NCBI RefSeq assembly: GCF_900112765.1
Contig: NZ_FOMZ01000009.1
Span: 239,863 to 294,080 of the forward strand
DNA length: 54,218 nt
Direction: 5' to 3'
DNA from: Actinopolyspora alba
GTDB taxonomy: Bacteria > Actinomycetota > Actinomycetes > Mycobacteriales > Pseudonocardiaceae
The position numbers and the translations under genes are program-made. Below, in pieces: positions 34,775 through 54,218 of this stretch. Under the pieces are notes generated by a model, which was not told where the DNA came from, did not search any database, and worked only from the letters and a program-made list of their open reading frames with translations. Positions within the stretch are counted from its first letter, which is position 1. Each line of letters opens with the position of its first letter.

Positions 34775-35919
34775 GACAGACCGTTCACCGCTGTGATCAA
34801 CATCGCGACCTTGGAGGCCACCTCGGCAGCCTCGTCGGTCAGCCCGCCCAGACGCTTGAGCGCTCGTACGGACCTGCTCTTGCCATCGGACGTGTCCTCC
34901 TTCAACGCCTCGCTGGCGAGGGCGAGCTCATGCTGCGCGTCTTCGTAAGTGGGGGAGTCGAGCGTGCCGATCGAACGGGCACGTTCGAGCTCGTCGCGGA
35001 GGGAGGCAAGCTTGGCCGCGAGATCGTCAGGTGTCGCGGCCGGTTGTGCCGGGCCGATCGTGACGGTGCTGTTGGTGACGTCTCTGGCCTGGATTCCGAC
35101 TGTGCTGCCGTGCGCGATGTGGGTGACATCGCCGCTGCTGGGCTTGTTCCGATGCCGCATCGGGCTGTTCCCCTGTTCAGTGATGAGTTCTTCGGCGAGT
35201 CGAGTGGCGAATGCCGCGGCGTTGTCGGCGGCCCGCGGTTGCCAGGTGCCGTCACCGGCGGTGTTCTTGGTCCCGTCGGCCTTGTCGCTGATTCCGCGCA
35301 CGACGGCCACCGGGGAGCCGTTGAGGTGGCCGGCTTGAGCGACACCGGCTGATTCCATCTCGATGGCCAGCGCGTCGTTGTAGTGCTGGCGGATCCATGC
35401 CGCCTCGTAAGAGATCCGGGAGTTGTGCACGATCTCTCCGGCAGCGATCGCTCCGAAGTGGACGTTGTGGTGGTGTCGGCCGGAACCCGCGTGGCCGGTC
35501 CAGCCGTCGGTGCGGGCCACGTGCGAGGCGAGCTGGCTGATCCCGTGTTCGGCTTCCCACACCCGAGGTCTGGCTTTGAGTCCGTCGTCCTCGCTGGTGC
35601 CGCCGTGGTAGGCGTAGACGTGCGTGGCCACCACGACGTCGCCCAGCGGCGTGGCATCCCACAACGCACCGGCCACGCCGACGAACAGCACGGCCGCCGG
35701 ATCGAACTCGTGGATCGCGCGCTCGGCCAAGACCGCCGCGGAGTGATTTCCTTTGCTGGTCAAGGCAAGTGCTACCTGACAGCCCGTATCGCGCAGGGAA
35801 CCGACCTCGAACCGGGTGCCTCGTTCATGCAGCTGAAGCTGCGGGGCGACCAGTCTGCGCCGCACGGCGTCGTACTCGAGATTCAAGGCGGTGAGCACCA
35901 CCACCATGTTCTCCGTCAT
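34771..35919 (-). CDS. MTA/SAH-nucleosidase-like phosphorylase with C-terminal GIQA extension
   Basis: 382 residues. Residues 1-245 are a nucleoside phosphorylase/MTAN fold: MVVVLTALNLEYDAVRRRL, LFVGVAGALWDATPLGDVVV, nucleoside-binding IEMESAGV (186-193) and the catalytic-Asp loop GISDKADG (209-216). It would cleave an N-glycosidic bond of a purine nucleoside or related signal. The extension carries GSTVGIQARDVTNSTVTI (271-288), a likely coiled coil and a final hydrophobic segment (ASKVAMLITAVNGL). Phosphorylase domains of this type recur in NTPase-linked bacterial conflict systems. It overlaps both neighbours by ATGA. The substrate is unknown and stand-alone salvage is less likely given the extension. 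Confidence 0.75.
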   Translation of the reverse strand: MTENMVVVLTALNLEYDAVRRRLVAPQLQLHERGTRFEVGSLRDTGCQVALALTSKGNHSAAVLAERAIHEFDPAAVLFVGVAGALWDATPLGDVVVATHVYAYHGGTSEDDGLKARPRVWEAEHGISQLASHVARTDGWTGHAGSGRHHHNVHFGAIAAGEIVHNSRISYEAAWIRQHYNDALAIEMESAGVAQAGHLNGSPVAVVRGISDKADGTKNTAGDGTWQPRAADNAAAFATRLAEELITEQGNSPMRHRNKPSSGDVTHIAHGSTVGIQARDVTNSTVTIGPAQPAATPDDLAAKLASLRDELERARSIGTLDSPTYEDAQHELALASEALKEDTSDGKSRSVRALKRLGGLTDEAAEVASKVAMLITAVNGLS

Positions 35920-36644
35920 CTCGCTCCTTCGGAGTCGATGGATTCAGGTCTCACCAGCGGTGGATGCAGCACAGCCGTCGACCCGGCCTTGAACAACCGC
36001 GCAGGACGCCCCTTCGTGGCCCTGCGTTCCTGTCCGGCCGGCTCGATGAACCCGGGGACCTTCTGCACCTTCCGGTAGAAGTTCCGCGGATCCAGCCGCA
36101 CCCCCCACACGGCCTCGTAGACCTGCTGCAGTTCGGCGATCGTGAAGGTCTCCCGGCAGAAAGCGGTCGCCAACGCCGAATGCTCCAGCTTGCTCCGCGC
36201 CCGCTCGATGCCATCGGTCACGATCCGGAGGTGGTCGAAGGCCAACTTCGTCCGGCCGAACAGCACGTCCGGCACCGATTCCCACCCGGCGTCCGCCGCG
36301 TCGGTACCGGCCACGGGGTCCGGAAGTTCGGGCGCGATCGCCAGGTAGGCCACCGAGATGACCCGTCCCCGCGGATCGCGACCAGGAGCCCCGTAGGTGC
36401 CCAGCTGCTCCAAGTGCAGCCGCGCCACGTCCAAGTCCGCCTCTTCCCGCAACTCCCGATGGGCGGCATCGAGGATGTCCTCACCGGCATGGTTCAAGAA
36501 TCCACCGGGTAACGCCCGCGCACCCCGATACGGGTCCACACCACGTTCGACCAGCAGCACGCGAAGCTCCTGCTCCCGCAGGGTGAAGATCACCAGGTCC
36601 ACAGTGACCAGAACTTCCGGCGGCGACCACGACTCTTCGATCAC
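35916..36644 (-). CDS. NrtR-like Nudix/winged-helix regulator
   Basis: 242 residues. Nudix half: VLVTVDLVIFTLREQELRVL, ALPGGF, and a Nudix box at about 48-71 (GFLNHAGE, then REL and EEADLD). The box has one extra residue before its first Glu and Asp where the Gly of EExGU should be, so hydrolysis may be lost. The C-terminal part (FTIAELQQVYEAVWGVRLDP, NFYRKVQKVPGFIEPAG) is the winged helix of NrtR-type repressors, which sense ADP-ribose and control NAD genes. It is first of three coupled genes and two palindromes lie just upstream of its ATG, so autoregulation is likely. It may report NAD breakdown products to the two effectors behind it. Confidence 0.8.
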   Translation of the reverse strand: MIEESWSPPEVLVTVDLVIFTLREQELRVLLVERGVDPYRGARALPGGFLNHAGEDILDAAHRELREEADLDVARLHLEQLGTYGAPGRDPRGRVISVAYLAIAPELPDPVAGTDAADAGWESVPDVLFGRTKLAFDHLRIVTDGIERARSKLEHSALATAFCRETFTIAELQQVYEAVWGVRLDPRNFYRKVQKVPGFIEPAGQERRATKGRPARLFKAGSTAVLHPPLVRPESIDSEGAR

Positions 36645-40802: not shown

Positions 40803-41551
40803 CGTGCTACACGGTAACGCCCCGCTGTCTATCGAGGACCGTCGTCGTCTCGTCGCTCGTTGCCAGTACCGTCCGATCGCCCATGTCGCCGCACCGTCAC
40901 CCGCCACCTACGACGCTTGGGCCTGCAGCGTCGTAGGTTCCTCGGCTCACCGGCGCCTCGAACCGCACGCCGCGTCGGATCATTGCCTACCGGCCGGGAC
41001 ACATGGTCAACCTCGACGTGAACAAGGTCGGCCGCGTCCGGTGACGGCGGCTGGCGCGACCACGGCCGCGGCAGCCACCAGGCCCAGACCGTCGAACGTC
41101 GTAAGGCCGCCGGTGCTCGGGCCGGACACGGTTCCCTGCGCTCGGCCGTCGATGGCTACTCGCGGCTGACCTGAACTGAGGCGTTACCGGACGAGAAGGC
41201 GGCCACCGCGATCGCTGTCACCCACCGGGCGCGGGCGTTCTTCGCCGCGCACGGCATCACCCACATCCAGCGGATCGTGACCGATAACGGTGCGTGCTAT
41301 CGCGCCGGCGACGTCGCCACCGTGCTGCGCGGTGCGCGGCACCAGCGCATCACTCCGTACACGCCCCGATACAACGGGATCCTGGCCGAGGAGTTCCGTT
41401 CCGCCCGCGCTCGGCCCAGCGAGCAGCAGCGCGCCCAGGACCTGACGGGGTGGAACATCCACGACAACTACCATCGACCGCACACTGCCGCCGGAAACCG
41501 GCCTCCCAGCTCCACACCGGCGTCACCAACCTCCAGACCTCTTACTACTAG
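40803..41551 (+). pseudogene. Decayed IS481-family transposase
   Basis: Pieces in different frames match an IS481 transposase in order. LHGNAPLSIEDRRRLVARCQ with PIAHVAA is the HTH start. A fragment around 40985-41035 reads IIAYRPGHMVNLDVNKVGRV, the first catalytic Asp strand. HITHIQRIVTDNGACYR (second Asp) and HQRITPYTPRYNGILAEEF with NIHDNYHRPHTAAGNRP form the C-terminal core. The helix with the catalytic Glu has lost a few residues (NG-ILAEEF) and several frame breaks are present. No terminal repeats were identified. It borders the biosynthetic cluster. Confidence 0.75.
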
Positions 41552-42120
41552 TGGCCCCGAGCCTGAGCAAGGCATGTAGTGGGCTGGAAGTCGGATAGAT
41601 GCTCGTCAAGCGAGGGCAGTTCGGCGCGTCGGGAGACAGTGGTCGGATCGGGTGTCCCGACGTAGAGCCAGCCAAGTAGCGATTCGTCTTTGTGCACATC
41701 CAGCATCGCCCTCGCCGACGGGCTACTTACATGCTTCCCTGTTTTCCAGATCGACCCGTACCCACCGTTGTGGAGTAGGAGCATGAGGTTGTTGACGACG
41801 CCAGCGGTGGCGACCAGCTGTTCCCACCCTGGAATCGTGTTTCCCCGTGGCCGGAACACGATTGTCACGAGCAGCGGTGCGCGCAGTGGGAGTTGAGCGA
41901 CCTGCTCAGGTGACTTGGTGCCGGAGTCAACGGCGAAGCACTGACCGAGTGCTTCGCGGGCATGTCCTCGGACTGTGATGAACCGCCAAGGATGTAGCCG
42001 TCCATGGTCTGGGGCATGTGCGGCCGACTCGATCATGTGGCCCAACTCGCTGTGGTCCGGTGTCGGGTCCAGAAGCCGGTGTTGGCTCATGCGAGTCCTG
42101 ATTGCTGCCGGGACCTCCAC
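41548..42120 (-). CDS. Nitroreductase-family flavoprotein
   Basis: 190 residues from GTG 42120, chosen for AAGGAG six bases ahead. The frame extends upstream but reads as Pro/Arg-rich nonsense. Family features are ESAAHAPDHGRLHPWRFITV (FMN-binding Arg and substrate loop), APLLVTIVFRP, the dimer helix GWEQLVATAGVVNNLMLLLH and SIWKTGKHV, ending in LLGWLYVGTP. It uses FMN and NAD(P)H to reduce, or in some members dehydrogenate, a small substrate. It is the last gene of the minus-strand biosynthetic series, 191 nt behind the peptidase. The gap makes membership in the operon likely but not certain. Confidence 0.8.
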   Translation of the reverse strand: MEVPAAIRTRMSQHRLLDPTPDHSELGHMIESAAHAPDHGRLHPWRFITVRGHAREALGQCFAVDSGTKSPEQVAQLPLRAPLLVTIVFRPRGNTIPGWEQLVATAGVVNNLMLLLHNGGYGSIWKTGKHVSSPSARAMLDVHKDESLLGWLYVGTPDPTTVSRRAELPSLDEHLSDFQPTTCLAQARGH

Positions 42121-42311
42121 CTGTATCTCCTTACTTTCCTCGACGTCCTGCCATGCGCTGCGGTCCCCGGAGGTCTGATGCCGCGAAATCCCAGCGACCG
42201 GGTGGTCCAGCCGGACCTCTGGGCTGGGGCGTGAAGACATCGGGGTGGGTTGTTGGTCAGGACGAGACAGTGGCGCAAAGTGTGAGGGCGCATTTTGCTG
42301 GCTTAGTACAC

Positions 42312-44033
42312 CTAGCGGGTGAGCTCGGTGTGCAGCAGATCCAGTCCCATCGGACCCAAGTCCAGGGCGTGGTGGTGGAAATGCTTGAGATCGAAGGCGG
42401 CGCCCTCGCGGCGGCGGACTGCCTCCCGCGCCTCCAGCCACACCTTCTCTCCCAACTTGTAGGCGATGGCCTGCCCAGGGCGTCCTAAATATCGATCGAT
42501 CTCGAACTCCACGAACCCCGGCGGACCCAGCCCGCAGTGCTCGATGAGGAACTCACGGGCCAGCTGCGGCGTCCACCGCTCGCCGTCATGGAACCCAGTG
42601 CCTACGGGGATCGGGAACTGCAGATGCAGTCCGATGTCCAGCACGATCCGCGCGGCACGCAGCTGCTGCCCGCCGGCCAGCATTCCCAGCCGGTGTGCCG
42701 GGTCAGCGAAGTACCCCAGCTCGTCCATCAACCGCTCGGCGTACAGGCCCCACCCTTCACAGTGCCCCGGGTGCAGTTCACTCGACAGTCGCTGGAACCG
42801 GTTGAGGGTGGTGGTGTTCAGGGCCGTCATACCCAGCTGTAGGTGATGCCCCGGGACACCTTCGTGGAACATCGTGCTTGGCACCGTCCATGTCGGGATC
42901 GGCGCGTTCGGATCGGACAGCGTCCACCAGACAGTCCCGGGACGGGACATATCCTCGCTGGGTGCGAGATAGTAGGCGGGTCCGTTGTTGGAAGCGATCC
43001 GGCAGTCAATCCGCCGCAACGGCTCGGGGATCGTGAAGTGCATCCCGTCGAGGTCGGCAATGGCGCCATCAGCAAGCTCCTGAATCCAGTCGCGCAGGGC
43101 CTCCGCGCCCATCACCTGGTACTTGGGATCGTTGTCGAGCGCCGTCAGCACTGCCGGCACCGGTTCGCCGGGTGCGATTTGCGCCGCCGCCTCGGTCATG
43201 TCGCGCCGTACCCGGGCTAGTTCGTCCCAACCCCACGCGTAGGTCTCCGCCAGGTCCAGTCTGGTGCCGAGAAACTCCCGGACCCCCAGCTGGTAGCGAT
43301 CTCCGCCCAGAGCGTCCAGCTGCGGCGCATCCGCCACAAGCTCCTCGGATAGGTACGCCGCGAACCGTGTCAACGCCTCGCTTGCGGCCGCCACAGCCTG
43401 ATCCAGAACGCCGCGGAACACACCGTCGCCATGCTTGGCGGGCAACCCGGTCAGGTACTGTCGCATGTCCCGGCAATCCCCAGCGTTACGGCTGATCTGA
43501 CGGACCGGTGCGACCAAGCCGTCGCGCCGGGCAGCCTCCAGGCTCTCGCGCAATCCCGTCAGCGCTCTCGGGAGGGACCGCAGTCGCGAGAGCAACGCAT
43601 CCCGTGCAGTGTCACTGCCCTGGTCCAACATCTCCACCGCGAGCCGCATTCGCTGGATCGGCCCGTCGATGGTGTCCAACAACGTGCCGTACGCATCGGC
43701 GTCAGCCAGTGCCACCTCAGTGGCAAGCCGCTCACGCAGCATCGCCGCAGCGACTCGCTCCGCTTCCCCCACGACCGGTGTCTCGTCGATCGTCCTCAAC
43801 GTGCGACGGGCCAACTCCGATCGCGCCTGCACCGTCTCCGGGTCGAAATCGGTCAGCTGTCCCTCCCGCCCGGAGATGCCCATCACCTCGGCTTGGCATG
43901 GATCCAACACAGCCATGTCGTCCACGTACCGGTCCACGAGATCGTTGAGGGCGGTCGTTGACGGAGGCCCACCGTGGGGGGCTGGGCGGCGGTCACAGGC
44001 CACGGTTTCCGGTGCCGCTTGATACTTCGTCAT
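42312..44033 (-). CDS. DUF885-family zinc peptidase
   Basis: 573 residues. The zinc motif is HEGVPGHHLQLGM (about 388-400), an HExxH-type variant, followed by HCEGWGLYAERLMDELGYF with the third ligand in E-G-W. The rest is helical, as in DUF885 proteins, which are relatives of M32/M3-type carboxypeptidases. Known members are poorly characterised hydrolases. The ATGA overlap with the ATP-grasp gene places it in the pathway, perhaps removing a protecting aminoacyl group or trimming the peptide product. There is no signal peptide, so it is cytosolic. Confidence 0.8.
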   Translation of the reverse strand: MTKYQAAPETVACDRRPAPHGGPPSTTALNDLVDRYVDDMAVLDPCQAEVMGISGREGQLTDFDPETVQARSELARRTLRTIDETPVVGEAERVAAAMLRERLATEVALADADAYGTLLDTIDGPIQRMRLAVEMLDQGSDTARDALLSRLRSLPRALTGLRESLEAARRDGLVAPVRQISRNAGDCRDMRQYLTGLPAKHGDGVFRGVLDQAVAAASEALTRFAAYLSEELVADAPQLDALGGDRYQLGVREFLGTRLDLAETYAWGWDELARVRRDMTEAAAQIAPGEPVPAVLTALDNDPKYQVMGAEALRDWIQELADGAIADLDGMHFTIPEPLRRIDCRIASNNGPAYYLAPSEDMSRPGTVWWTLSDPNAPIPTWTVPSTMFHEGVPGHHLQLGMTALNTTTLNRFQRLSSELHPGHCEGWGLYAERLMDELGYFADPAHRLGMLAGGQQLRAARIVLDIGLHLQFPIPVGTGFHDGERWTPQLAREFLIEHCGLGPPGFVEFEIDRYLGRPGQAIAYKLGEKVWLEAREAVRRREGAAFDLKHFHHHALDLGPMGLDLLHTELTR

Positions 44034-45274
44034 GCCGAGACCTCTTCCGGAGCCGTGGTGACGGAAAGGGCGCCGAACAAGTCGACGATCCAGTCGCGGG
44101 TCTTCTCGGGAGTGTCGCTCACAGTGATCCCGGTGAGAACCGTCTCTCCGGCCTGGTAGGTGATGTGGTCGGGCAACGGTGTGCCAGGCAGCAGTTCGTT
44201 CCAGGCGACCACGTGCGGACTATGCCGGAAAGGCTCGGTACCGTCGAGGCCCCGGAACCCCATCCCAGCCAGATGATGGCCGGGATGGACGAACCAGCCG
44301 TACCAGCTTCGATCGGTGGGTGGTTCGGGGAGCGTCCCGATGAGGGACTCGCCGAGCAGGACGCGCAGCTCGTATGACGGCAGGTGGACTCCGGTGGCCA
44401 GCTCGACGGTCGCCACCACGTCGGCACCCCCCACTCGGTTCCCGACCTCGAGAAAGACGAGTTCTCCCCCGTGGACGATCGCCTCGAGATGGAAGCTGCC
44501 GTCCTCGATCCGCACAGCGGACAGAGCGCGCGAGACCCAGTCGCGAGTCTCCTCGGAGATCTCGATCTGGAACGACCCCATCGGCATGCCCTGTGCGTAT
44601 GCCAGGCAGGTGCCCACGTATTCGCTCCCACTGAGGATCAGAACCTCGCCGCCCTGCACCAGACCGTCGAAGTGCCTAATCGGGCCGGAGACGAACTCCT
44701 CAACCGCAAGCTCCTCCAGGTCACTGCCAGCGTCGACCCGGGCGACGCCGGTTCGCCCCTCGGCGATCGCCGCGGCGACTTGCCCCGGGGTATCGAATAC
44801 GAGTACGTCCTCGCTGGACGCGCCACGATTCGGTTTGAGGACGGTTTGGCCGTCCCAAGGCACCTGGCCGGCGAGTTCGAGGAAACGTGGCAACGGGAGG
44901 AAGCGCGGCACACGGATACCTGCCGCTTCAACCGCCTCTTTCATCAGGGGCTTGTCACGGGCAAGGGCAACCTGTTTCACCGATGCACCCGGGATATTCA
45001 GCTGCTCACGCAGCCGAGCGGCGTCGAGCAGCTCGTACTCCGACATCGAGATGACACGATCGAAGGCGCGAGTCATCTCCGCCAGCCACTCCTGGGCCTC
45101 CTCGAACGCCGAGCGCGCCCCCGGGCGACTCACCCGTTCGCAGCGCAGGTCAGAGGGCAGGGTTGCCAGAGCCTGGTCAGTTCCAAAGTAAGTGACCTCG
45201 TGCTGGCTGTGGTCGATTCCACGATGGTATTCAATTTTGAAGTAGGGCACGCGGTGCAGGATGAGGATTTTCAT
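44030..45274 (-). CDS. ATP-grasp carboxylate-amine ligase (copy 1)
   Basis: 414 residues. N-terminal Rossmann-like part MKILILHRVPYFKIEYHRGI, central ALARDKPLMKEAVEAAGIRV with the usual K-x-x-M-K…G-I/V-P entry to the ATP-binding domain, TVLKPNRGASSEDVLVF (ATP Lys and Gly loop), and Mg site HLEAIVHGGELVFLEVGNRV with GG (E…E-x-N/G-R). It resembles carbamoyl-phosphate-synthase-like ligases that activate a carboxylate as acyl phosphate for amide formation. Its start overlaps copy 2 and its end overlaps the peptidase by ATGA, so three genes are coupled. Substrates are unknown. Confidence 0.85.
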   Translation of the reverse strand: MKILILHRVPYFKIEYHRGIDHSQHEVTYFGTDQALATLPSDLRCERVSRPGARSAFEEAQEWLAEMTRAFDRVISMSEYELLDAARLREQLNIPGASVKQVALARDKPLMKEAVEAAGIRVPRFLPLPRFLELAGQVPWDGQTVLKPNRGASSEDVLVFDTPGQVAAAIAEGRTGVARVDAGSDLEELAVEEFVSGPIRHFDGLVQGGEVLILSGSEYVGTCLAYAQGMPMGSFQIEISEETRDWVSRALSAVRIEDGSFHLEAIVHGGELVFLEVGNRVGGADVVATVELATGVHLPSYELRVLLGESLIGTLPEPPTDRSWYGWFVHPGHHLAGMGFRGLDGTEPFRHSPHVVAWNELLPGTPLPDHITYQAGETVLTGITVSDTPEKTRDWIVDLFGALSVTTAPEEVSA

Positions 45275-46602
45275 AAGCCTCTCCTAACGGGAGTGGGGGC
45301 GTTGAGAGCGCGATCCAAGGCGTCAGACCATGCCTCGCGCAAGGCGTACACGACGGTGCGGATGTCGGCGCGGTCGCCGTGTAGCACAACGCAGCCCTGC
45401 GCCGCGAAATCTGCGTTGTCACGGGCTACCGCGTGCAGCTCGCGGCGCGCGGGCGATAACCAGGAGAACTCCATGATGGTCAATTCCCCCTCGCCCAGGC
45501 CAAACCATTCGGCGGTGGCCTGCACCGCCTCCGCGAATGGATTCGCTCCCACCGCGACGTCATCCGGCGAGAACGAGCGGTCGCTCCCGACGCCGAGCAT
45601 GACCGTCGCCGCCGAGCAACGAGGCACCAGCTGCCCCGTGTTGGCGGCCGTACCAAATGCCGTGTCGACCCAGCGATGGTGCAAATCGATCCCGTAGACC
45701 CATCGGGCCATCGACCAGATCTTCATCCCAGCAGGTCTCCGGTTTGGCTCCACGATCGCGGCGCTCAGTCCGTCGTCGCTCAGCTTGATCTCGTTGTGGA
45801 ACGGCCCGTTGCGCTGACCGACCAGCAAGTTCGCCTGCCGCCCTGTTCGTTTCAACGTCACGAGCTCGTACTCGTCCACTGCGGCGGGCAGCACCTGCGC
45901 AATCTCGACGGGATACCGTCCGCGTGCACTGATCTTCTCGGTGAGGAACTCCAGCGATCCCAGCCCATCGAAGGAGTACTCACGGCGGTACGGGATGAAC
46001 TCCTCGCAGATGACCCCGCTATCCAGATAGGGGAGGACCTCGGCGAACGCCGCCGTTAGGTCGTCGCCGGGACGGACCGCGACGACGCCTCGGTTGTTTC
46101 CCTCCACGGCGGGCTTAACGACGAAGCCCTCCTCGGCATGGTCACGTGCGAACACGCTCAACTCCTCGAATGAGGAGATCTTGGCGAATGCGGGCACCAT
46201 TATCCCTTGCGCGGTTAGCAGGTCGGCCACGCGCGATTCGCCAAGCCGGTAGCTGTGCTTGGAGAACGCGCCCTCGGCCAGGTGTGGCGAGTCGACCGCG
46301 ACACCCAGCCGCTCGAGCAACTCGACCCCACTGCGCACGGCATTGTCGGAGAAGACAATGCCTGCCTTGATTCGCTCGCGCCGGTCGGCGAGTAGTTTCT
46401 CCCCTAACTCGGCAAAGTCGTCGCTGAGTGGATCGAGGTCGATTACCTCGTCGGCGATGGCATGATCGGTTTCAGTGGGATCAGCACGGATCAGGATCAC
46501 GGTCGCGCTGTGGCGTTCGCGCGCATACTCCTGCAGGTGGCGTACCTCGTCGATCCGGCTGAGATTGTAGTCGACGATGATGAGGATCGGTCCGGTCATC
46601 AT
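45271..46602 (-). CDS. ATP-grasp carboxylate-amine ligase (copy 2)
   Basis: 443 residues. Start MMTGPILIIVDYNLSRIDEV, then SKHSYRLGESRVADLLTAQG and IMVPAFAKI leading into the grasp domain, GFVVKPAVEGNNRGVVAVRP (ATP Lys and loop), ICEEFIPYRREYSFDGLGSL (adenine hinge) and AAIVEPNRRPAGMKIWSMAR, which replaces the usual E-x-N-x-R metal motif. It is divergent from its neighbours, so the three ligases are not recent duplicates. ATGATGA at its start overlaps the copy 3 stop. It probably joins a different pair of building blocks. Confidence 0.8.
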   Translation of the reverse strand: MMTGPILIIVDYNLSRIDEVRHLQEYARERHSATVILIRADPTETDHAIADEVIDLDPLSDDFAELGEKLLADRRERIKAGIVFSDNAVRSGVELLERLGVAVDSPHLAEGAFSKHSYRLGESRVADLLTAQGIMVPAFAKISSFEELSVFARDHAEEGFVVKPAVEGNNRGVVAVRPGDDLTAAFAEVLPYLDSGVICEEFIPYRREYSFDGLGSLEFLTEKISARGRYPVEIAQVLPAAVDEYELVTLKRTGRQANLLVGQRNGPFHNEIKLSDDGLSAAIVEPNRRPAGMKIWSMARWVYGIDLHHRWVDTAFGTAANTGQLVPRCSAATVMLGVGSDRSFSPDDVAVGANPFAEAVQATAEWFGLGEGELTIMEFSWLSPARRELHAVARDNADFAAQGCVVLHGDRADIRTVVYALREAWSDALDRALNAPTPVRRGL

Positions 46603-48011
46603 CCGCTCTCCGTCTCGTACATGATTTCGATCGCGCGCATGGAAGCGGGAAGCAGCTCAGCAAGGAGGTCATCCCGGTCGGCCAGGTCCATGCGCCAGAG
46701 CACCTGACCGAGGAAGACCTCACGCGAGGACGCCTCCACGACGTCACCGGGCTTGAGAAGGACATGCGACAGAAGCGGCTGAAACGGGAGGTCATCGTTC
46801 AGACCCACCTCACGGATGGTGCCGGGGCCAGTGAAAAAAACGCGGAAGAACGTCGCGTTCGGGCTCGGCGTGGTGCCGTCCATCCCGAACGACAGCCCCT
46901 TCAGCGTCTTCAGGAATCCACCCGGCTGGCTGGCGGTAAGCAGCAAGTCCAGCCACAAATCGAGCATCCCCGGACCGCCGGTCAGCGCCGCCACGCTGGG
47001 CGAAATCAGACTGCCGCCGACGCGCGGGTTGACCTCGATCAGATCCCAGCCGGACGAGGCGTACCGCGCTTCGACATGGAAACAGCCCCAGCGGAGATCC
47101 AGAGCGGTCAGCGCCCTCGTCGTCCACCGGATCCCGGCGGCGACTTCTTCCTGCGACAGAGTCGTCGGTGGGCTGACGCAGGCGTTCTCGAGCACGGTGC
47201 CCGTCGACTCCGTCACCTCGCACTTCTCGTGCACGGCCACCACATACGGATCACCGTCGACGACGACCACCTCGAAGCTGAACTCTTGTCCAGGCACGTA
47301 ATCCTCGATGAGGAACTCCACCTCGCAGCCCACACCGGAGGGCGCGCTCACGGCCGAGTCCGCGCCGTTGTTCAGGTCCGTGCCGGATTGCGAGAACGGG
47401 CCAGCGGTGGTGGCGAAGGTGTTTGCGTAGACCGTGTCGGAACGAGCTTCCAAGGTGAGGCGTTCCAGTTCGGACCAGGTCGTCTCGGGGGTGAGCGGGA
47501 ACGTTCCGAACGAGGCGATACCGCTGACCGGTTTCACGAAATAGCGGCCGCCCTCGCGTTGCCGCTCAGCGAGTGTCGTGGGGGTGAGCGCGGACGCTCG
47601 GCCCCGGGTTAAGCCGACGTCGGCGAGCCGATTCCGCAGCGTTAGCTTGTCGCGTAGTTTCAGGATTTGCTTCTCGTCCAGGTCTGGCACGCCGAGGCGA
47701 GCGTTGGCCGACGCCATCAAGTGCCGGTACCCCTCCCAGACGGTGAGACAGCACTGCACAGATGTACCCGTGGCCTCCAGCTGGTCGATATAGGCATCGA
47801 CGTCCTCTGGGGTCAGCACGTGCTCGCTGGTCACGTGGAGCTCGTCGGCGAGCTCGATGAGCTGCTCAGGTCTGGATACTTGGTGCCTCGGTTCCGGCAG
47901 CGAGCTGAGCACGCAAGTTTTCACCCCTCGCGCCGTGACCGTGCCGATGAGGTCCTCCATGAACGAGAACCCGACGTGGCTGAGCAGCAGTACTCCCAAG
48001 GTGTTTTCCAT
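46599..48011 (-). CDS. ATP-grasp carboxylate-amine ligase (copy 3)
   Basis: 470 residues from ATG 48011 (GGAGG ten bases ahead; the in-frame TTG at 48017 is a possible earlier start). Features are ILKLRDKLTLRNRLADVGLT, GGRYFVKPVSGIASFGTFPL (ATP site), FLIEDYVPGQEFSFEVVVVD (hinge and E-x-S), and metal site CFHVEARYASSGWDLIEVNP with RVGG. This is the classic peptide-ligase type (E…E-x-N-P-R). It is the first of the coupled ligase-ligase-ligase-peptidase block and lies 69 nt behind the di-iron oxidase. It likely forms an amide with a tailored amino acid. Confidence 0.85.
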   Translation of the reverse strand: MENTLGVLLLSHVGFSFMEDLIGTVTARGVKTCVLSSLPEPRHQVSRPEQLIELADELHVTSEHVLTPEDVDAYIDQLEATGTSVQCCLTVWEGYRHLMASANARLGVPDLDEKQILKLRDKLTLRNRLADVGLTRGRASALTPTTLAERQREGGRYFVKPVSGIASFGTFPLTPETTWSELERLTLEARSDTVYANTFATTAGPFSQSGTDLNNGADSAVSAPSGVGCEVEFLIEDYVPGQEFSFEVVVVDGDPYVVAVHEKCEVTESTGTVLENACVSPPTTLSQEEVAAGIRWTTRALTALDLRWGCFHVEARYASSGWDLIEVNPRVGGSLISPSVAALTGGPGMLDLWLDLLLTASQPGGFLKTLKGLSFGMDGTTPSPNATFFRVFFTGPGTIREVGLNDDLPFQPLLSHVLLKPGDVVEASSREVFLGQVLWRMDLADRDDLLAELLPASMRAIEIMYETESG

Positions 48012-48080
48012 GCTCAATCCGCCTCCTCACTGGCGGGCGGGGGCGCGACGCGACGCCGCGCCCCCGCACGGAGAACAGGC

Positions 48081-48842
48081 TCAGGCCGACTGCTTCTCGG
48101 CCTTGGCAATGGTGTCCCGATGGAGCTCCTCGAAGTACTGCCCGAGGATCGTCTGGTGCTCGCGGAGGTACCGCTTGAAGGCGGCGATGTCATCCTCGCT
48201 GCGAAGCAGGTGCCGGACGGCCTCCCACACCTCGCCGGGGTGGTCTTCGTTCACGTCGGTGTGCGAGTGGTTAATCTGACCGCCGATATTGCTCTCGCCG
48301 ACTGAGCCCTTCAGCGCCTCCAGCTTCCTGGGCTCCAGCTTCACATTCACGTACTCGACCAGATAGGAGTACGCCACCACGCCGAGCGGACCCTCGTGAT
48401 CCAGGAGGTAGGAGAAGTAGCCGGACAGCAGTTTGGTCGACAGATAGGGTTCGGTGGCCAGGAACTGCTCGCGTGATACACCGACCTTCTCAAGGTCGGC
48501 GATGAACAGTTCGTCGTGGAGCATCTCCTCCTGTTCGTAGTTTGCCCAGACCTGTGCCGCCTCTGGGCTTACCTTGGCTATCTCCACCAGTGCCTTCGCT
48601 TCGGCCACCCGCAGCATCCGGATGCGCCAGGCGGTTTCGATCAGATTCCGCTTGTAGTACTCAGAATCGACATTCTTGCCCTCGAGGTGCGCAGCCTCGG
48701 AGACATTGGCGTACCATTCGACGACCTGCTGGTCGAGCTGCTCGTCGATCTCGGTACGTAGCTTCGCCGAGGCGGTCGCGTTGAGGAACGGGGTGCGCTC
48801 CGGGGTGTGCTCCCCATAACCAACGTTGATCACGCGATTCAT
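48081..48842 (-). CDS. Haem-oxygenase-like di-iron oxidase (HDO)
   Basis: 253 residues from ATG 48842, preceded by AAAGGTGA. An all-helical protein of the iron-containing redox enzyme family. Candidate metal ligands are seen in YEQEEMLHDELF (Glu105/106, His109), YSYLVEYVNV (Glu163) and NHSHTDVNEDH (His192, His194, Asp196, His201). HDOs such as UndA, BesC and SznF use O2 and a di-iron centre for desaturation, C-C cleavage, N-oxidation or ring formation. The next two upstream genes are a ferredoxin and its reductase, a dedicated electron supply. The exact reaction cannot be told from sequence. Confidence 0.8.
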   Translation of the reverse strand: MNRVINVGYGEHTPERTPFLNATASAKLRTEIDEQLDQQVVEWYANVSEAAHLEGKNVDSEYYKRNLIETAWRIRMLRVAEAKALVEIAKVSPEAAQVWANYEQEEMLHDELFIADLEKVGVSREQFLATEPYLSTKLLSGYFSYLLDHEGPLGVVAYSYLVEYVNVKLEPRKLEALKGSVGESNIGGQINHSHTDVNEDHPGEVWEAVRHLLRSEDDIAAFKRYLREHQTILGQYFEELHRDTIAKAEKQSA

Positions 48843-48889
48843 CTTTTTGTCACCTTTCTTGTGTGTGCTCGAACGTTTGCCCGAGCAGT

Positions 48890-49189
48890 TCATGTGTCGG
48901 CCGCGGGGCGGACCTTCGCGTTGCCGTACAGCCGGCATTGACAGGCCAAGCGGTGGTCACCGCCGGGTCGGCCGAGATCTTCGAGGAAGTCGAGCTCGTT
49001 GTCGTCAGGTTGGCCGAGGGAGTCAGATCCCTCCAGCACTTCGATCACGCATACTCCGCATGATCCGGAACGGCATCCGAATGGGATGGGCTTCTGCAAG
49101 ATCTCGAACTCGATTTCAGTGAGACGAGATTTCGCGGGTAGCACGACCTTTGTTCCTGTCGGAAGGATGGTTAATGTGTACTGAGTCAT
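48890..49189 (-). CDS. Plant-type [2Fe-2S] ferredoxin
   Basis: 99 residues. Cluster ligands are Cys39, Cys44 and Cys47 in FGCRSGSCGVC and Cys83 in RLACQCRL, the C-x4-C-x2-C…C pattern. GxxCGxC spacing is that of vertebrate/plant-type 2Fe-2S proteins. It overlaps the reductase stop by ATGA and lies 47 nt before the di-iron oxidase, which it most likely reduces. Confidence 0.92.
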   Translation of the reverse strand: MTQYTLTILPTGTKVVLPAKSRLTEIEFEILQKPIPFGCRSGSCGVCVIEVLEGSDSLGQPDDNELDFLEDLGRPGGDHRLACQCRLYGNAKVRPAADT

Positions 49190-50208
49190 AGCAGCGGAGC
49201 GGCCTCGCGGTCGGTGGAATGTTCAGGCGCGAGAGGGGAACCGGGAAGAAGTTCGACTGCCACGTGATTCGCGGCGATCGCCGCGTCGCCGAACCCCACC
49301 GAGATAAGTGGGACGCGCCCCTCGTAGGTACAGATATCGCTGACCGCGTACACCCGTGGTAAGTTCGTCCGCATCGAGCTGTCGACCGCGATCTGACGAT
49401 TCTCCACACGAAGTCCCCAGTCCGCGATCGGGCCCAGGCTGGTGATGAATCCCAGTGCCGCGATGAGAACTTGTGCGGGCAGCGTCACTTCTTCTTCGCC
49501 GGTCCGGACCCGTACTTCTTCCAACCGCTCCACGCCATCACAGTTCGTCACCTGTGTATCGGTCAACACGTGAATGCCAGCCGTCGCATACATTTGTCTG
49601 ACGCTGTGCTCGTGGGCACGGAAAGATGAGCGCCGATGGACGACCGTGACGGACCGTGCGATCGGAGCGAGAGCGAGAGCCCAGTCAACCGCACTGTCAC
49701 TACCACCGACGATCACCACGTCGCGATCCCGGTGGTCATCGAGGTGCGGCACGTGGTATGCTACTCCACGTCCTTCGTATGGCCGTAGACAGGGCAACGT
49801 ACGCGGGACGGAACGTCCGAGTCCTCCCGCGATCACGACTGCCTGCGCTCGAATCCTCCCGCCATCCTCCAGTCCGACCGACCAGCCCGACTCCTCATCC
49901 AGGGTCAGGGAGGCCGCTGTCCGGCCGAGAAGGTAGTGCGGATGAAAGGGTGCGACCTGGGCGACTAGGTTGTCGACCAGTTCTCGACCTCGCACGGCCA
50001 CGTGGCCGGCAACGTCGTAGATCTTCTTTTCTGGATAGAGGGCCGCGATCTGGCCGCCCGGCTCCGGTAGCACGTCGACTATCGCGCTAGACAACCCTCG
50101 GAATCCCGCGCAGTAGGCCGCGTACAGTCCGGCTGGGCCCGCTCCGACGACAGCCACGTCCGCGCTCATCTCCGCGCCGGCCGCGACCGTGCCTCCTCGA
50201 TCGCCCAC
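49186..50208 (-). CDS. Ferredoxin-NADP reductase (thioredoxin-reductase-like type)
   Basis: 340 residues from GTG 50208 (AGGAGG six bases ahead). FAD-binding site VAVVGAGPAGLYAAYCA, then EPGGQIAALYPEKKIYDVAG, NAD(P) site VVIVGGSDSAVDWAL with downstream VHRRSSFRAH, and C-terminal YAVSDICTYEGRVPLISVGF. There is no CxxC redox pair, so it is a ferredoxin reductase of the TrxR-like class, not thioredoxin reductase. It passes NADPH electrons to the adjacent ferredoxin. A palindrome (CCTGAA-G-TTCAGG, 50218-50230) touches its ribosome binding site and could fold over it. Confidence 0.88.
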   Translation of the reverse strand: MGDRGGTVAAGAEMSADVAVVGAGPAGLYAAYCAGFRGLSSAIVDVLPEPGGQIAALYPEKKIYDVAGHVAVRGRELVDNLVAQVAPFHPHYLLGRTAASLTLDEESGWSVGLEDGGRIRAQAVVIAGGLGRSVPRTLPCLRPYEGRGVAYHVPHLDDHRDRDVVIVGGSDSAVDWALALAPIARSVTVVHRRSSFRAHEHSVRQMYATAGIHVLTDTQVTNCDGVERLEEVRVRTGEEEVTLPAQVLIAALGFITSLGPIADWGLRVENRQIAVDSSMRTNLPRVYAVSDICTYEGRVPLISVGFGDAAIAANHVAVELLPGSPLAPEHSTDREAAPLL

Positions 50209-50337
50209 TTGATTCCTCCTGAAGTTCAGGCGCTTTCAACGCTCAGCGACATCGGACTCGCAGCAGGTCCGCTAGCCGCTTGAGCAGCCGACACACCTGC
50301 ACGCCATTTCAAGAATCGGGAAAACGAGCAAGACCGA

Positions 50338-51627
50338 TTAGGCTAGTGACCGAATTACCGCCAGAGCCATCTCGACGTCCTCCGGGAAATTGACAATTCC
50401 GGCAGACAGTCGCACGCGTGGATCCGCATACGGCGTGCAACTCGCTATAACTCGATTGTTGCGGAGAATCTGAACAACGTCTCGTGGATTGTAACCATGG
50501 ACATCGAAGGTAACGATACCTGCAGACAGCTCCGGGTCAAGCGGTGTATGCAGCGTGACATGTTCCATATCCGCCAGACCGTCCTTGATCAGGCTGTTCA
50601 TCTCGGCGATTCGGTTCTGGACCCGCTTTCTTCCGATCTGCCAGTGGAAGTTGAACGCTTCCACCGTGGCCCACTGATGTTCGTACGCGAAGAATCCTCC
50701 GGGGCTGATCCACGAGCCTGCGTCCGGGTCAGCCGGTGGCCGGCCTTGTCGCCAGGCATTGGACGGCTCCTTGGCCATGAGGCTGGGAATCGTCGGCTGC
50801 ACCAGAGCCCAATTTTCCGGCTTTGCCCAGACGATTCCAGTTCCACGCGGGCCGAGAATCCACTTGTGTGTGCCCGCAGAAAAAAAGTCGCAACCCATCT
50901 TCGCGACGTCTTCGTCTACCACGCCAAAACCATGCACCCCGTCTACTACCAGCAGGATACGATCCTCTTCGTCGCGGTTTCGATTCACCTCAGCAATAGC
51001 TTCCGCGATTGCGGCCATCGGTAGCCGCACGCCGGTGTTTGAATGGACCCAAGCGACTGCGAAGACTCGGGTATTCGAGCGCACAGCGGCGCGTACTCGC
51101 TCGACGGCCTCATCGCCAGAGAAGTGGAACGACGACTCGTAAAGTGGGATTTCGCGCATGCTCGCGCCCCATTTGTCGCTTGCCAACCGTATTGATTCGT
51201 AGTGAGGGTAGAATTCGTGCGTAGTGGTAAGAATTTCCTGGCCGGGCTTCAGGCGGAGACCGTTGTGGATCAGGGCAAGACCCGTCGTGGTGCTGCTGGT
51301 GAGAGCGATTTCGTTAGACTGCCCGCCGATGTATTCGGCTGCGGCGGCGCATACGTTCCGCCATAGCATATCCTCATCGCGGCGGAACATGTTGTCGTCG
51401 AGAAAACCGTGGGGATCCTCATCGAACGCCCTCCGGTAGCGCGTGATCGCGTCGCGAACCGGCGTTGGGTTCGAGGCGAAGTAAAAATTCGACAGATGCG
51501 CGAGTTCGGGCGACAGCAGGAACTGGTCGCGGACGGATCTCCAGTCGTAGGGATCGAAGGACTGTTGCGCGGCATCCTGTGCAACAGCATTGTCCGTGGA
51601 TTCTATGGTCGTCGAGGAATCAGCCAT
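50338..51627 (-). CDS. Class V PLP-dependent aminotransferase/lyase
   Basis: 429 residues from ATG 51627 (GGAGGAG six bases ahead). Fold-type I PLP enzyme: SSTTTGLALIHNGLRL (cofactor phosphate), ILLVVDGVHGFGVVD with PLP-N1 Asp229, and Schiff-base Lys255 in SAGTHKWILGPRGTG. This is the isopenicillin-N-epimerase/EgtE/NifS-like branch, which includes epimerases, C-S lyases and beta-eliminating enzymes as well as transaminases. It is 129 nt upstream of the reductase gene in the same direction and heads the structural genes. It probably forms or modifies the unusual amino acid used by the ligases. Confidence 0.85.
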   Translation of the reverse strand: MADSSTTIESTDNAVAQDAAQQSFDPYDWRSVRDQFLLSPELAHLSNFYFASNPTPVRDAITRYRRAFDEDPHGFLDDNMFRRDEDMLWRNVCAAAAEYIGGQSNEIALTSSTTTGLALIHNGLRLKPGQEILTTTHEFYPHYESIRLASDKWGASMREIPLYESSFHFSGDEAVERVRAAVRSNTRVFAVAWVHSNTGVRLPMAAIAEAIAEVNRNRDEEDRILLVVDGVHGFGVVDEDVAKMGCDFFSAGTHKWILGPRGTGIVWAKPENWALVQPTIPSLMAKEPSNAWRQGRPPADPDAGSWISPGGFFAYEHQWATVEAFNFHWQIGRKRVQNRIAEMNSLIKDGLADMEHVTLHTPLDPELSAGIVTFDVHGYNPRDVVQILRNNRVIASCTPYADPRVRLSAGIVNFPEDVEMALAVIRSLA

Positions 51628-52152
51628 GTCGTTACTCCTCCATGAAAGTGCAATACGGCAAGACGTCGTGCGATGGCTTGAGTGCCGTCAGATCAGTACG
51701 GAAGTAGTCGATTCGAACCAGTTCTGCTGATTACTGAAAGTGAGACTAATTCTGCTTCCTTGGGGTCGTCAAGTGAACACGCCAACCGTATAGACACAGC
51801 TTGATCGTGTTGTGGATGTCACAATTTCTGGCGGGCCCCAAGGGTCGGTCAAGCTGCCAGAGCAGATTCTGGAGGCGCGGAAGTGTTCCTTGTGCAGGAT
51901 CGTCCATATGGGGGATCCATCGCGGTATGCGGTCCTGTTGGTGCGCGAGCGATCTAGTAGTGCTGTCAACGCCCATAAAAGAAGAAGAATCTGCGTCGCG
52001 AGAGTCAGTGGTCTGGCCGGAAACACCCACCGAAAAAATCCGACGACCTGAATCTAAGTTCAGATGAGGGTACTGCCGCGGATTCTGCCTCTGCCGGATC
52101 GACATCGGAGAGCCGGGCTCAAGGCATTGTCGAACCCCGCCTGGACAATCGC
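51628..52152. other. Gene-free stretch ahead of the PLP gene
   Basis: About 525 bases between the PLP gene start and the regulator stop. AT content is higher than in the genes. It should contain the main promoter of the minus-strand cluster. Small frames on both strands show no known motif. I could not find a complete StrR-type GTTCGA…TCGAAC palindrome, only half-site-like GTTCGA near 51713 (minus strand) and TGTCGAAC near 52128. Confidence 0.45.
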
Positions 52153-53193
52153 TCAGTCCGGGCCAGATGACGACGACCGCCGCTGGTCCAAGCGGAACGT
52201 CAGTTCTTGCCACGCATCGACGCTCGCAGCCGCGAGTTCCGCCACGGGATCGACGCAATGCTCCGGCAGATCCACGATGAGGCGCTCGTAGGCGTCGGCA
52301 TCCATCGAGGCCACCGCCAGAATGCTTAGCAGCAGGCGGCCGGACTCAGTAAACCGCAGCAACGGGTCGGCGCGGAGCGCGCGCAGCACCGCCTCAGGAT
52401 CGGCTGGTCTGTCGCGCCGCCGCGCCGCGACTTTCCGGTGCGGCATCTTCGTGCTCGACGCGGGAGCAGCAGAGCGGGGGTTCGGGATCTCTCGGCTGTC
52501 TTGCCGGAGTTGCTCCCGTACGGCACGTACGGTGCCCGGAGAAACTCCGGCAACCGCGCTCACCTCGCGCAAGGACGAGGTCGGGCTGTTCTCGAGGATC
52601 GACTTGGCACGCTCACGACCGGATGTCGTGCTTAGAGGCCGTTCACGGCCGTCGCGGCCGACCCTGGCCTGTATTTCAGGAAGGTTGCTCTTCTCACGCA
52701 GCCCGGCGATTGTTTTGTGCGACAGCCCAGCGACCTTCGCGATCGCCCTGTTCGACCAAGTTGGGTGCGCGTGCAGGATGTGTCCGGCGGCCTCCTTGCG
52801 CTCGGCTAATGTTAGCGGCAGCCCGTGCTTGACATTTAGGCGAACTGCCAGCACGAACGCGTTCTCATCGTCTCCGTCGAAAAAACGAGCCCGGATCGCG
52901 TGCTCCCCTCGGAGCTGTGCGGCGCGAACTCGGTACATTCCATCGACCACCCGGTTAGTACCCCGCTGGACGATGATCGGCGGCAGCTCGTCCTCCGACT
53001 CCGCCAGGGCCCGCGTGTGCTCGTTGTTCTCCCCCGCGGTCCGAGGTGACTTCGTCAGGACCAGCTCTTCGATAGGGATCCATTGGACATCGGCGCTCTT
53101 GTCGCCACACGCTTGGATATCCTCGAGCTGCAGCGGTCCGGGCTCCGCGGCCCCTCCACGAATGTGGACAGATTCGCTGTTTTCAATAGACAT
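52153..53193 (-). CDS. StrR/NovG-type ParB-like pathway-specific activator
   Basis: 346 residues from ATG 53193 (an in-frame TTG at 53202 is a possible earlier start; GGGGAGG lies just upstream of both). The ParB-like N-terminal domain reads HTRALAESEDELPPIIVQRG, then RVVDGMYRVRAAQLRGEHAI, ARFFDGDDENAFVLAVRLNV and KHGLPLTLAERKEAA. A ParB-type HTH follows (SNRAIAKVAGLSHKTIAGLR). This domain order is that of StrR and NovG, which switch on antibiotic clusters. Its place at the head of the biosynthetic genes, same strand, fits a cluster activator. The C-terminal ~100 residues are less conserved. Confidence 0.85.
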   Translation of the reverse strand: MSIENSESVHIRGGAAEPGPLQLEDIQACGDKSADVQWIPIEELVLTKSPRTAGENNEHTRALAESEDELPPIIVQRGTNRVVDGMYRVRAAQLRGEHAIRARFFDGDDENAFVLAVRLNVKHGLPLTLAERKEAAGHILHAHPTWSNRAIAKVAGLSHKTIAGLREKSNLPEIQARVGRDGRERPLSTTSGRERAKSILENSPTSSLREVSAVAGVSPGTVRAVREQLRQDSREIPNPRSAAPASSTKMPHRKVAARRRDRPADPEAVLRALRADPLLRFTESGRLLLSILAVASMDADAYERLIVDLPEHCVDPVAELAAASVDAWQELTFRLDQRRSSSSGPD

Positions 53194-53458
53194 CCCGCTC
53201 AATTACCTCCCCAGTCGTGCTTACCCTTTCGACTGCGTGTATTAATCTTCCGAAGGATGACGATGCCACAGATTGCGCGAAGGCAAGTGTCCTTCACGTG
53301 AACTCTTTCCGAGGTGATTCTTCGGCAGTCTTGCACCTCTTTTCACGCTTCCCGATCCGCCCTTGAGTTACCAAAACGGCCCTACATGCGAAGTGCGATC
53401 GTGTCACGACCTCGTGTCGGAAGGCAGAGTGCGCTGTGACCTGTCGAAATCTACCGTC

Positions 53459-53501: not shown

Positions 53502-53657
53502 TCAGGTGTGGCACTCCGCCGTGCAACTGGGATTCTTCGCCAGTTGTACGGGCACCGGTGGTACCGCTGAGCCCAGGTCGCGCAGACGGCAGACTTTGAT
53601 TCCAGGCGAGGAAGGGTCGACGGCGGGCAGGGCGGGCACGTCAAAGCCGACATCCAT
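53502..53657 (-). CDS. Possible 51-residue peptide (uncharacterised; RiPP-like?)
   Basis: The ORF starts ATG 53657 with MDVGFDVPALPAVDPSSPGI and ends NPSCTAECHT. It has three cysteines, two in the last seven residues, an acidic start, and a Pro/Val-rich middle. Small size and a Cys/Thr-rich C-terminus resemble a precursor peptide, but no known leader motif is visible. Support for a real gene is the strong hairpin straight after its stop and the divergent regulator 83 bases away. Against it is the weak ribosome binding site (GAGA only). No RiPP-type modifying enzyme is next to it unless the ATP-grasp genes serve. Confidence 0.35.
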   Translation of the reverse strand: MDVGFDVPALPAVDPSSPGIKVCRLRDLGSAVPPVPVQLAKNPSCTAECHT

Positions 53658-53740
53658 TCTCGGGCTGGTAGTAGTATGAAACCAATCGGAATGTAGTCAT
53701 AAAGGTAGCAATATGCAACCGATCTGTTTGGGGGTCTGCC
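53658..53740. promoter_or_regulatory. Divergent control region with an 11-base direct repeat
   Basis: GTAGTATGAAA (53671-53681) and GTAGTCATAAA (53693-53703) match at 9 of 11 positions and are 22 bases apart, two helical turns. They lie between the small ORF and the HxlR gene and are a plausible HxlR-type binding site. Confidence 0.4.
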
Positions 53741-54218
53741 GTGACCACACCACCCGCCGGGTCAGGACACCCAGCCGCGCCCTCCGACGGGTGGTCCGAC
53801 CCTCCCTGCGCTCTCGCGCGCGCCGTGGACCTCGTCGGGGACAGGTGGAGCCTGCTGATCCTCCGCGACGCCTTAGACGGGACCCGGGCGTTCAGCGACT
53901 TCCAGCGCAACCTCGGTGTCGCCAAGAACATCCTGAGCGACCGACTCCGCCGGCTCGTCGCCCACGGCATCCTCGACCGACAGACCGCCGCATCGGGCAA
54001 ACGGCAGGAATACGTCCTCACCCACTCCGGTGAACAACTGTTCACCGCCATGGTGGCCCTACGGCAATGGGGCGAGTCACACGCTTTCAACACCGGCGAG
54101 CCTCACTCGGTACTGCTCGACGACGACACCGGCACACCGGTACCGACACTGCACCTACAACGCCCGGACGGCACCACCCTCACCGCCAACAACACCCACA
54201 TCGAAAAACTCACTAACG
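53741..54218 (+). CDS. HxlR-family winged-helix regulator (3' end cut by window)
   Basis: 159 residues are visible from GTG 53741 and the frame runs off the window without a stop. Features are CALARAVDLVGDRWSLLILR, then FSDFQRNLGVAKNILSDRLR, LVAHGILDRQ and QEYVLTHSGEQLFTAMVALR with QWG. This is the standard HxlR helix-turn-helix with the characteristic D-R-W-S-L-L-I-L-R start. These proteins act as dimers and often control the divergent gene in response to electrophiles or small ligands. The part after TGEPHSVLLDDDTG is a C-terminal extension seen in many actinobacterial members. Confidence 0.88.
   Translation, partial: MTTPPAGSGHPAAPSDGWSDPPCALARAVDLVGDRWSLLILRDALDGTRAFSDFQRNLGVAKNILSDRLRRLVAHGILDRQTAASGKRQEYVLTHSGEQLFTAMVALRQWGESHAFNTGEPHSVLLDDDTGTPVPTLHLQRPDGTTLTANNTHIEKLTN

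What the first reader, a model, noticed from the sequence alone, without database searches (positions are those of the whole stretch)
41548..53193. Uncharacterised cluster: three ATP-grasp ligases with a di-iron oxidase
A StrR-type activator heads a class V PLP enzyme, a ferredoxin reductase, a ferredoxin, a haem-oxygenase-like di-iron oxidase, three ATP-grasp ligases, a DUF885 peptidase and a nitroreductase. No NRPS, PKS or halogenase is present. It should make a small ligase-built peptide containing an oxidatively remodelled amino acid. HDO enzymes make alkenes, nitroso groups, azetidines and similar rare groups, so the product could be chemically new.
Basis: partly seen in the sequence, partly recalled or inferred. 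Interest (0 to 1): 0.85.

Follow-up and report, generated by a model that had tools for sequence, protein, structure and literature searches.

The report
Ligase-built peptide cluster with di-iron oxidase
This is a real gene cluster, shared with Streptomyces and even a Burkholderia, that probably stitches a short peptide with stand-alone ligases and then oxidises one of its amino acids with an iron enzyme related to the one that makes the alkyne in mangotoxin; its product is unknown.

Summary
In detail: ten minus-strand genes at 41548-53202 encode a ParB/HTH-like (StrR-like) regulator, a PvdN-like PLP enzyme, a ferredoxin reductase, a [2Fe-2S] ferredoxin, a haem-oxygenase-like di-iron oxidase (HDO), three ATP-grasp proteins, a DUF885 metallopeptidase and a nitroreductase. 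It is not unique. The cassette reductase-ferredoxin-HDO-AG1-AG2-AG3 is complete in 12 of 15 named Streptomyces/Streptacidiphilus loci and on a Streptomyces plasmid, and without the reductase on a Burkholderia stagnalis plasmid. The HDO's only strong solved relative is MboA, the mangotoxin alkyne-forming enzyme that works on a ligase-built tripeptide (PMC13185094). MboA's iron ligands and proposed base Tyr82 are kept; its arginine-binding residues are replaced by one uniform set in 23 of 23 clade rows (20 distinct). Best reading: a MboA-like desaturase or acetylenase acting on a non-arginine C-terminal residue of a peptide made by the ligases, fed by its own ferredoxin chain; the PvdN-like enzyme may make a carboxamide end. 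The product is unknown and all chemistry is inferred. New variant of a known kind.

The parts
52153..53202 (-). StrR-like regulator (ParB-like plus helix-turn-helix); start uncertain (TTG 53202 or ATG 53193)
   Evidence: weak HTH/ParB models; 36-42% homologues just upstream of the reductase in 12 of 15 loci; homologue annotated ParB/RepB/Spo0J in S. cyaneofuscatus
50338..51627 (-). PvdN-like class V PLP enzyme, lysine motif SAGTHKW; no Tat signal seen by eye
   Evidence: NCBIfam PvdN 383.1 bits, below cut-off 650; PDB 5i90 PvdN E 8.4e-88; 38.5% identity to PvdN
49186..50208 (-). Thioredoxin-reductase-like ferredoxin-NAD(P)H reductase
   Evidence: no CxxC motif; overlaps the ferredoxin gene by 4 bp
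48890..49189 (-). [2Fe-2S] ferredoxin
   Evidence: Fer2; Cys39, 44, 47, 83, 85
48081..48842 (-). Haem-oxygenase-like di-iron oxidase (HDO), 253 aa
   Evidence: MboA E 4e-19; ligand equivalents E106, H109, E163, H192, D196, H201, plus D110 and Tyr102; model pLDDT 84.4, Foldseek 3dde, CADD, UndA
46599..48017 (-). ATP-grasp ligase AG1
   Evidence: ATP-grasp_4 51.5 bits; 3vot
45271..46602 (-). ATP-grasp protein AG2 (divergent)
   Evidence: profile hits 3vot, BacD; BacD/YwfE first in Foldseek of a weak model
44030..45274 (-). ATP-grasp ligase AG3
   Evidence: 4wd3, 3vot; hhalign with AG1 97.3%
42312..44033 (-). DUF885 zinc-peptidase-like protein, HEGVPGHH motif
   Evidence: 443.2 bits; 3iuk E 9.9e-110; motif; present in 11 of 15 loci
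41548..42120 (-). Nitroreductase, probable start GTG 42120 (the ORF starts at 42441)
   Evidence: start candidate behind AAGGAG; L004, 1 of 15 named loci, and L063 beside the PLP gene
53741..54218 (+). HTH regulator (HxlR-like by eye) at the contig end; counterpart of the HTH gene beside the exporter in Streptomyces clusters. A near-identical inverted copy starts contig C35, followed by an MFS exporter (outside the window)
   Evidence: 58% to S. cyaneofuscatus HTH; 564 of 571 bases identical to C35:1-571; MFS 53-55%

Best explanation
A peptide-making biosynthetic cluster of the HDO plus ATP-grasp kind. AG1-AG3 join amino acids into a tri- or tetrapeptide. Electrons pass from NAD(P)H through the flavin reductase and the [2Fe-2S] ferredoxin to the HDO, which binds the peptide's C-terminal carboxylate at its di-iron site, takes H from C-beta and, with Tyr102 as base, makes a beta,gamma double bond, possibly a triple bond on a second turnover. 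The residue is not expected to be arginine. The PvdN-like enzyme may convert an end that still has both alpha-amino and alpha-carboxyl groups (such as a gamma-linked Glu) into a primary carboxamide (loss of 30.01 Da, my arithmetic). DUF885 peptidase trims or inactivates the product, the MFS protein exports it, the ParB/HTH protein activates the operon. Shown here: gene content, order, conservation, active-site residues. Inferred: every reaction, the peptide, its length, regulation and export.
For: HDO closest to MboA; MboA's iron ligands and Tyr82 are kept in the window protein and in the aligned relatives wherever the alignment reaches. MboA acts on a ligase-built Leu-Ala-Arg and needs the flavin/Fe2S2 partner MboB to go past the alkene (PMC13185094, whole text). 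VarO, put by those authors at about 30% identity to MboA, desaturates a peptide Arg (passages of PMC6511847). Reductase, ferredoxin, HDO and three ligases stand together in 12 of 15 named loci; of the other three, two are cut by contig edges and one is broken. AG1-like and AG3-like genes also lie near a sister HDO class in 4 of 4 loci. Ferredoxin-HDO-AG1-AG2-AG3 persists in B. stagnalis. Four-base overlaps couple AG1-AG2-AG3-DUF885. O2-dependent carboxamide formation by PvdN: passages of PMC7497351 and PMC11794154.
Against: Only 27% identity to MboA over 191 residues, a distance at which HDO chemistry can change. Asn57, Asp61, Asp139 of MboA are Leu, Glu, Ser, so the substrate differs. AG2 is not securely a ligase. 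The PLP enzyme was found in only 9 of 15 named loci, and not in L013, L014 or the B. stagnalis stretch, so its step is not common to all; B. stagnalis also lacks a match to the reductase. Foldseek did not show MboA among the 50 matches listed of 725; its entries may postdate the library limit of 8 April 2026, which I did not verify. Seven of the nine other HDO relatives opened (L071-L079) have no ligase match in the stretch. I have no product, expression or enzyme data.
Confidence: 0.5

Rival explanations
1. The HDO oxidises an amino acid first (as BesC or PolF do, recalled and named in PMC13185094) and the ligases then build it into a peptide.
For: Characterised HDOs have predominantly been linked to fatty- or amino-acid substrates (PMC13108848, passages); PolF and BesC are among the Foldseek matches.
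Against: By sequence only MboA, a peptide oxidase, is a strong characterised relative; pocket residues vary by clade, and ligase context differs between clades.
Confidence: 0.25
2. A cluster whose product is already known under a name that I could not reach (subscription paper or MIBiG entry).
For: It is common enough (5 of 392 sampled genomes of the Streptomyces-like genus with HDO identity 80-89%) to have been found; PMC13185094 counts at least 25 HDO plus ATP-grasp cluster types, and its list is in a supplement not open to me.
Against: Six searches aimed at it listed no paper that, by title, abstract start or opened passages, describes it; open-licence papers only, and searches showed 20 of 104 and 30 of 257 papers.
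Confidence: 0.15
3. The product is a metal-binding small molecule (siderophore or chalkophore type) rather than an antimetabolite peptide.
For: PvdN-like enzyme; TonB, ExbB/ExbD and a TonB-dependent receptor near the B. stagnalis core.
Against: The TonB-system genes start about 7 kb beyond AG3; none is annotated in the S. cyaneofuscatus stretch, where such systems are not expected anyway (recalled); the B. stagnalis stretch has no match to the PvdN-like gene.
Confidence: 0.1

Closest known systems
Mangotoxin (mbo) cluster, Pseudomonas syringae
   Same: HDO of the same family with the same iron ligands and base Tyr, dedicated NAD(P)H/flavin/Fe2S2 electron supply, ATP-grasp ligases beside it (PMC13185094, whole text)
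   Different: Two ligases, not three; one reductase MboB holding flavin and Fe2S2, here a separate reductase and ferredoxin; arginine pocket absent here; no counterpart of the arginine deiminase MboE among the ten proteins, while PvdN-like and DUF885 genes are added; HDO 27% identical
Thiovarsolin (var) cluster, Streptomyces varsoviensis
   Same: HDO (VarO) with an ATP-grasp ligase and an MFS exporter gene; beta,gamma-desaturation of a peptide residue
   Different: Ribosomal peptide with YcaO/TfuA; deletion of the ligase gene varL did not affect production; no reductase or ferredoxin among the seven genes named (PMC6511847, passages). VarO sequence was not compared here
PvdN of pyoverdine biosynthesis
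   Same: Fold-type I PLP enzyme, 38.5% identical
   Different: Below the NCBIfam equivalog cut-off (383.1 against 650 bits); PvdN is periplasmic, no export signal seen here by eye
L-amino-acid ligases BL00235, BacD, RizA
   Same: ATP-grasp relatives by sequence or fold
   Different: Low similarity; substrates unknown; AG2 only at E about 1e-4

Membership tests
HDO superfamily (di-iron) | Haem-oxygenase-like helical fold | tested here: met
   AlphaFold2 model pLDDT 84.4; Foldseek: 3dde TM 0.76, CADD, UndA
HDO superfamily (di-iron) | 3-His/3-carboxylate ligand set | tested here: met
   E106, H109, E163, H192, D196, H201 align with MboA's six ligands; kept in all 42 rows except that the aligned piece of L030 ends before the last three
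HDO superfamily (di-iron) | Bound iron and O2 activation | not testable with these tools
   needs protein
MboA-type peptide acetylenase | Sequence relation to MboA above other solved HDOs | tested here: met
   E 4e-19; next 3dde 8.7e-7; no other characterised HDO with E up to 1
MboA-type peptide acetylenase | Arg pocket Asn57, Asp61, Asp139 | tested here: not met
   Leu, Glu, Ser in 23 of 23 clade rows (20 distinct)
MboA-type peptide acetylenase | Dedicated electron-transfer partner | tested here: met
   reductase and ferredoxin genes adjacent in the window and in 12 complete loci of 15; B. stagnalis matches the ferredoxin only
MboA-type peptide acetylenase | Alkyne product | not testable with these tools
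   needs assay
Mangotoxin mbo operon | MboE-like arginine deiminase and two ligases | tested here: not met
   three ATP-grasp genes and no deiminase family among the ten proteins
PvdN equivalog | NCBIfam NF051467 cut-off 650 bits | tested here: not met
   383.1 bits
StrR regulators | Similarity to StrR itself | not tested
   no StrR model or sequence at hand; only sub-threshold ParB/HTH matches, none in the PDB

The most novel reading that the evidence does not exclude
A widespread, unread family of actinobacterial peptides, made by three stand-alone ligases, in which an MboA-type HDO with its own two-protein ferredoxin chain installs an alkyne (or alkene) on a non-arginine C-terminal residue, and a cytoplasmic PvdN-like enzyme caps another end as a carboxamide.
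Probability: 0.3. Interest if true: 0.75.

Novelty: new variant of a known kind. Interest (0 to 1): 0.55.

Why it matters
MboA is the one HDO described as making an alkyne in the two papers I saw on this (PMC13185094, whole text; PMC13108848, passages). A second, clearly separate clade with a uniform and different substrate pocket, three ligases and its own redox proteins, present in culture-collection strains, would show whether alkyne-forming HDO chemistry is general and what sets its substrate. The three pocket positions give a direct test of that.

Tried and rejected
Rejected: cluster unique to this genome; chance arrangement; SznF/BesC/PolF-type chemistry as first choice (not returned by sequence). 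Led nowhere: VarO by name (searches gave only PMC6511847 of use); vinyl/dehydroarginine peptides; the diazo paper PMC13061610, whose enzyme is a ferritin-like oxidase (passages); papers PMC12145162 and PMC12335807 are not held; the penicillin ligase paper PMC13338154 (passages); AG2 against AG1 by hhalign failed; no PDB relative of the regulator. I looked for a YcaO context among third-class HDO loci with a crude motif in a script and stopped without an answer.

Row handling: three loci (L062, L064, L065) appear to be the same contigs as L002, L008, L016 (equal contig lengths), so 23 clade rows are 20 distinct. Of the 39 places listed, 20 were fetched for context and one (G191). L067 begins at its contig end, so genes beyond its HDO could not be seen. 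Counts per gene are within flanks of up to 10 kb. For proteins with more than 25 family matches only the best 25 were shown.
Full report
What is there. The ten genes of the finding are real and lie on the minus strand. FdR-Fdx, AG1-AG2, AG2-AG3 and AG3-DUF885 overlap by four bases, so most of the set looks like one translation-coupled operon. The HDO probably begins at ATG 48842, where similarity to the homologues begins.

How widespread it is. A scan of one genome per species found 15 loci with HDO relatives, 14 Streptomyces and one Streptacidiphilus, 70-88% identical. Reductase, ferredoxin, HDO and AG1-3 are all present in 12 of 15; L009 and L011 are cut by contig edges, and L003 (S. tricolor) matches only the first 194 residues of AG1. 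Within the fetched flanks the regulator was found in 12 of 15, DUF885 in 11, the PLP enzyme in 9, the nitroreductase in 1. A Streptomyces cyaneofuscatus plasmid carries the full set except the nitroreductase, with an HTH/MFS pair and gamma-butyrolactone-type genes ScbA/ScbR; a Burkholderia stagnalis plasmid carries ferredoxin, HDO, AG1, AG2, AG3 at 49-72% and an MFS gene at 42%, with no match to the reductase, regulator, DUF885 or PLP gene in the 28.7 kb seen. In a sample of one genus of the same class, which I take for Streptomyces, 35 of 392 genomes have some HDO relative and 5 of 392 a close one (80-89%). In the window's own genus 1 of 10 genomes has it, the window's, and in the phylum sample 3 of 396, itself included, the other two at 38% and 26%. 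Horizontal arrival is therefore likely (inference).

The edge of the window is a contig end. The last 571 bases (a HTH gene) recur inverted at the start of contig C35 (564 of 571 identical), and there an MFS exporter 53-55% identical to the Streptomyces cluster's exporter follows. In Streptomyces this HTH/MFS pair lies within the cluster, so the cluster probably continues there; the gap is not closed.

What the HDO is. By sequence the only strong solved relative is MboA (E 4e-19; next 3dde, 8.7e-7). In PMC13185094 (whole text read) MboA, with the flavin/Fe2S2 reductase MboB, turns the C-terminal Arg of a ligase-built Leu-Ala-Arg into an alkyne; without MboB only traces of alkene form. I mapped the residues that paper names: the six iron ligands, Asp90 and Tyr82 are all present in the window protein; Asn57, Asp61, Asp139, which hold the guanidinium, are Leu77, Glu81, Ser159 here. 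Across 42 rows the three positions follow the tree: Leu/Glu/Ser in 23 of 23 close-clade rows (20 distinct), Ser/Gln/Asn in the 4 sister rows, Lys/Asp/(Val, Ser or Gly) in 11 rows, Asn/Asp/(Asn or Asp) in MboA and its 3 nearest rows; Tyr82, Glu86, His89 and Glu143 equivalents are invariant, those of His172, Asp176, His181 are kept in the 41 rows whose alignment reaches them, and position 90 is Asp, or Glu in L080 and L081. This is evidence of one shared substrate type for the clade, different from arginine, not of what it is.

Ligase context. Of 20 fetched loci of the genus sample, all 5 close-clade loci (3 of them the same contigs as named loci) have the whole cassette; all 4 sister loci (40-43% HDO) have AG1-like and AG3-like genes near the HDO but no reductase or ferredoxin match in the stretch; L080 and L081 of the MboA clade have ligases; of the remaining 9 loci only L071 and L077 have any ligase-like match, several kb away. 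So among these loci the reductase/ferredoxin pair goes with this clade, much as MboB goes with MboA. By MboA's logic this favours more than one turnover, that is alkyne rather than alkene; this step is inference.

Other enzymes. PvdN is described as an O2-using PLP enzyme that decarboxylates its substrate, and as a carboxamide former together with Cap15 (passages of PMC7497351 and PMC11794154). If the PLP enzyme here does the same, the peptide should carry an end with both free alpha-amino and alpha-carboxyl groups. DUF885 has a zinc-peptidase-like motif; trimming or self-protection are guesses.

Literature. Six searches of open papers aimed at such a cluster listed no paper that, by title, abstract start or the passages I opened, describes it; four more were on VarO, dehydroarginine and PvdN. 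PMC13185094 states that 1447 HDOs lie near an ATP-grasp gene in at least 25 cluster types; this one is probably among them, but the list is in a supplement that I could not open. The cluster is therefore a new variant of a known kind, not a new category.

Noticed in passing
window 11773-31981: Defence-like island beside the cluster: DpdE homologue (1568 bits), DrmMI/type IIG-like methyltransferase, UvrD helicase, AAA protein, DUF6119, and a 2069-aa protein combining a Ser/Thr kinase with a DruE-like helicase and MZB domain.
   Followed up: partly
window 53648-54218 and G000:C35:1-571 (L026): A HTH gene region, 564 of 571 bases identical, inverted at two contig ends; likely the repeat that broke the assembly.
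   Followed up: partly
L029:7998-11248 (Paraburkholderia phymatum pBPHY02): An MboA-clade HDO with two ATP-grasp genes sits between nifA and nodB on a symbiosis plasmid; similar HDO hits in P. phenoliruptrix and P. sabiae were not opened.
   Followed up: no
L067-L070: Sister HDO class with AG1/AG3-like ligases; L069 also has EPSP synthase, DUF1611, PhyH, PhzF, MFS and aminotransferase families, L070 has DUF1611, PhyH and a malic enzyme: another cluster type that I could not name.
   Followed up: partly
L027:12349-13302 (Burkholderia stagnalis): A second iron-containing redox enzyme gene next to the ferredoxin-HDO-ligase core, with several luciferase-like oxidoreductases and TonB genes nearby.
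   Followed up: no
L003:6027-6608 (S. tricolor): AG1 stops matching after 194 residues and no match to AG2, AG3 or DUF885 follows although the sequence continues: a broken or rearranged copy.
   Followed up: no
L071, L073, L074, L076, L077: Third HDO class (Lys/Asp/Val pocket) next to proteins sharing a FGQFGEPSGTFCL-like start, seen by eye; no ligase adjacent.
   Followed up: no
window 34771-36644: NrtR-like NUDIX regulator gene beside a nucleoside-phosphorylase-family gene.
   Followed up: no
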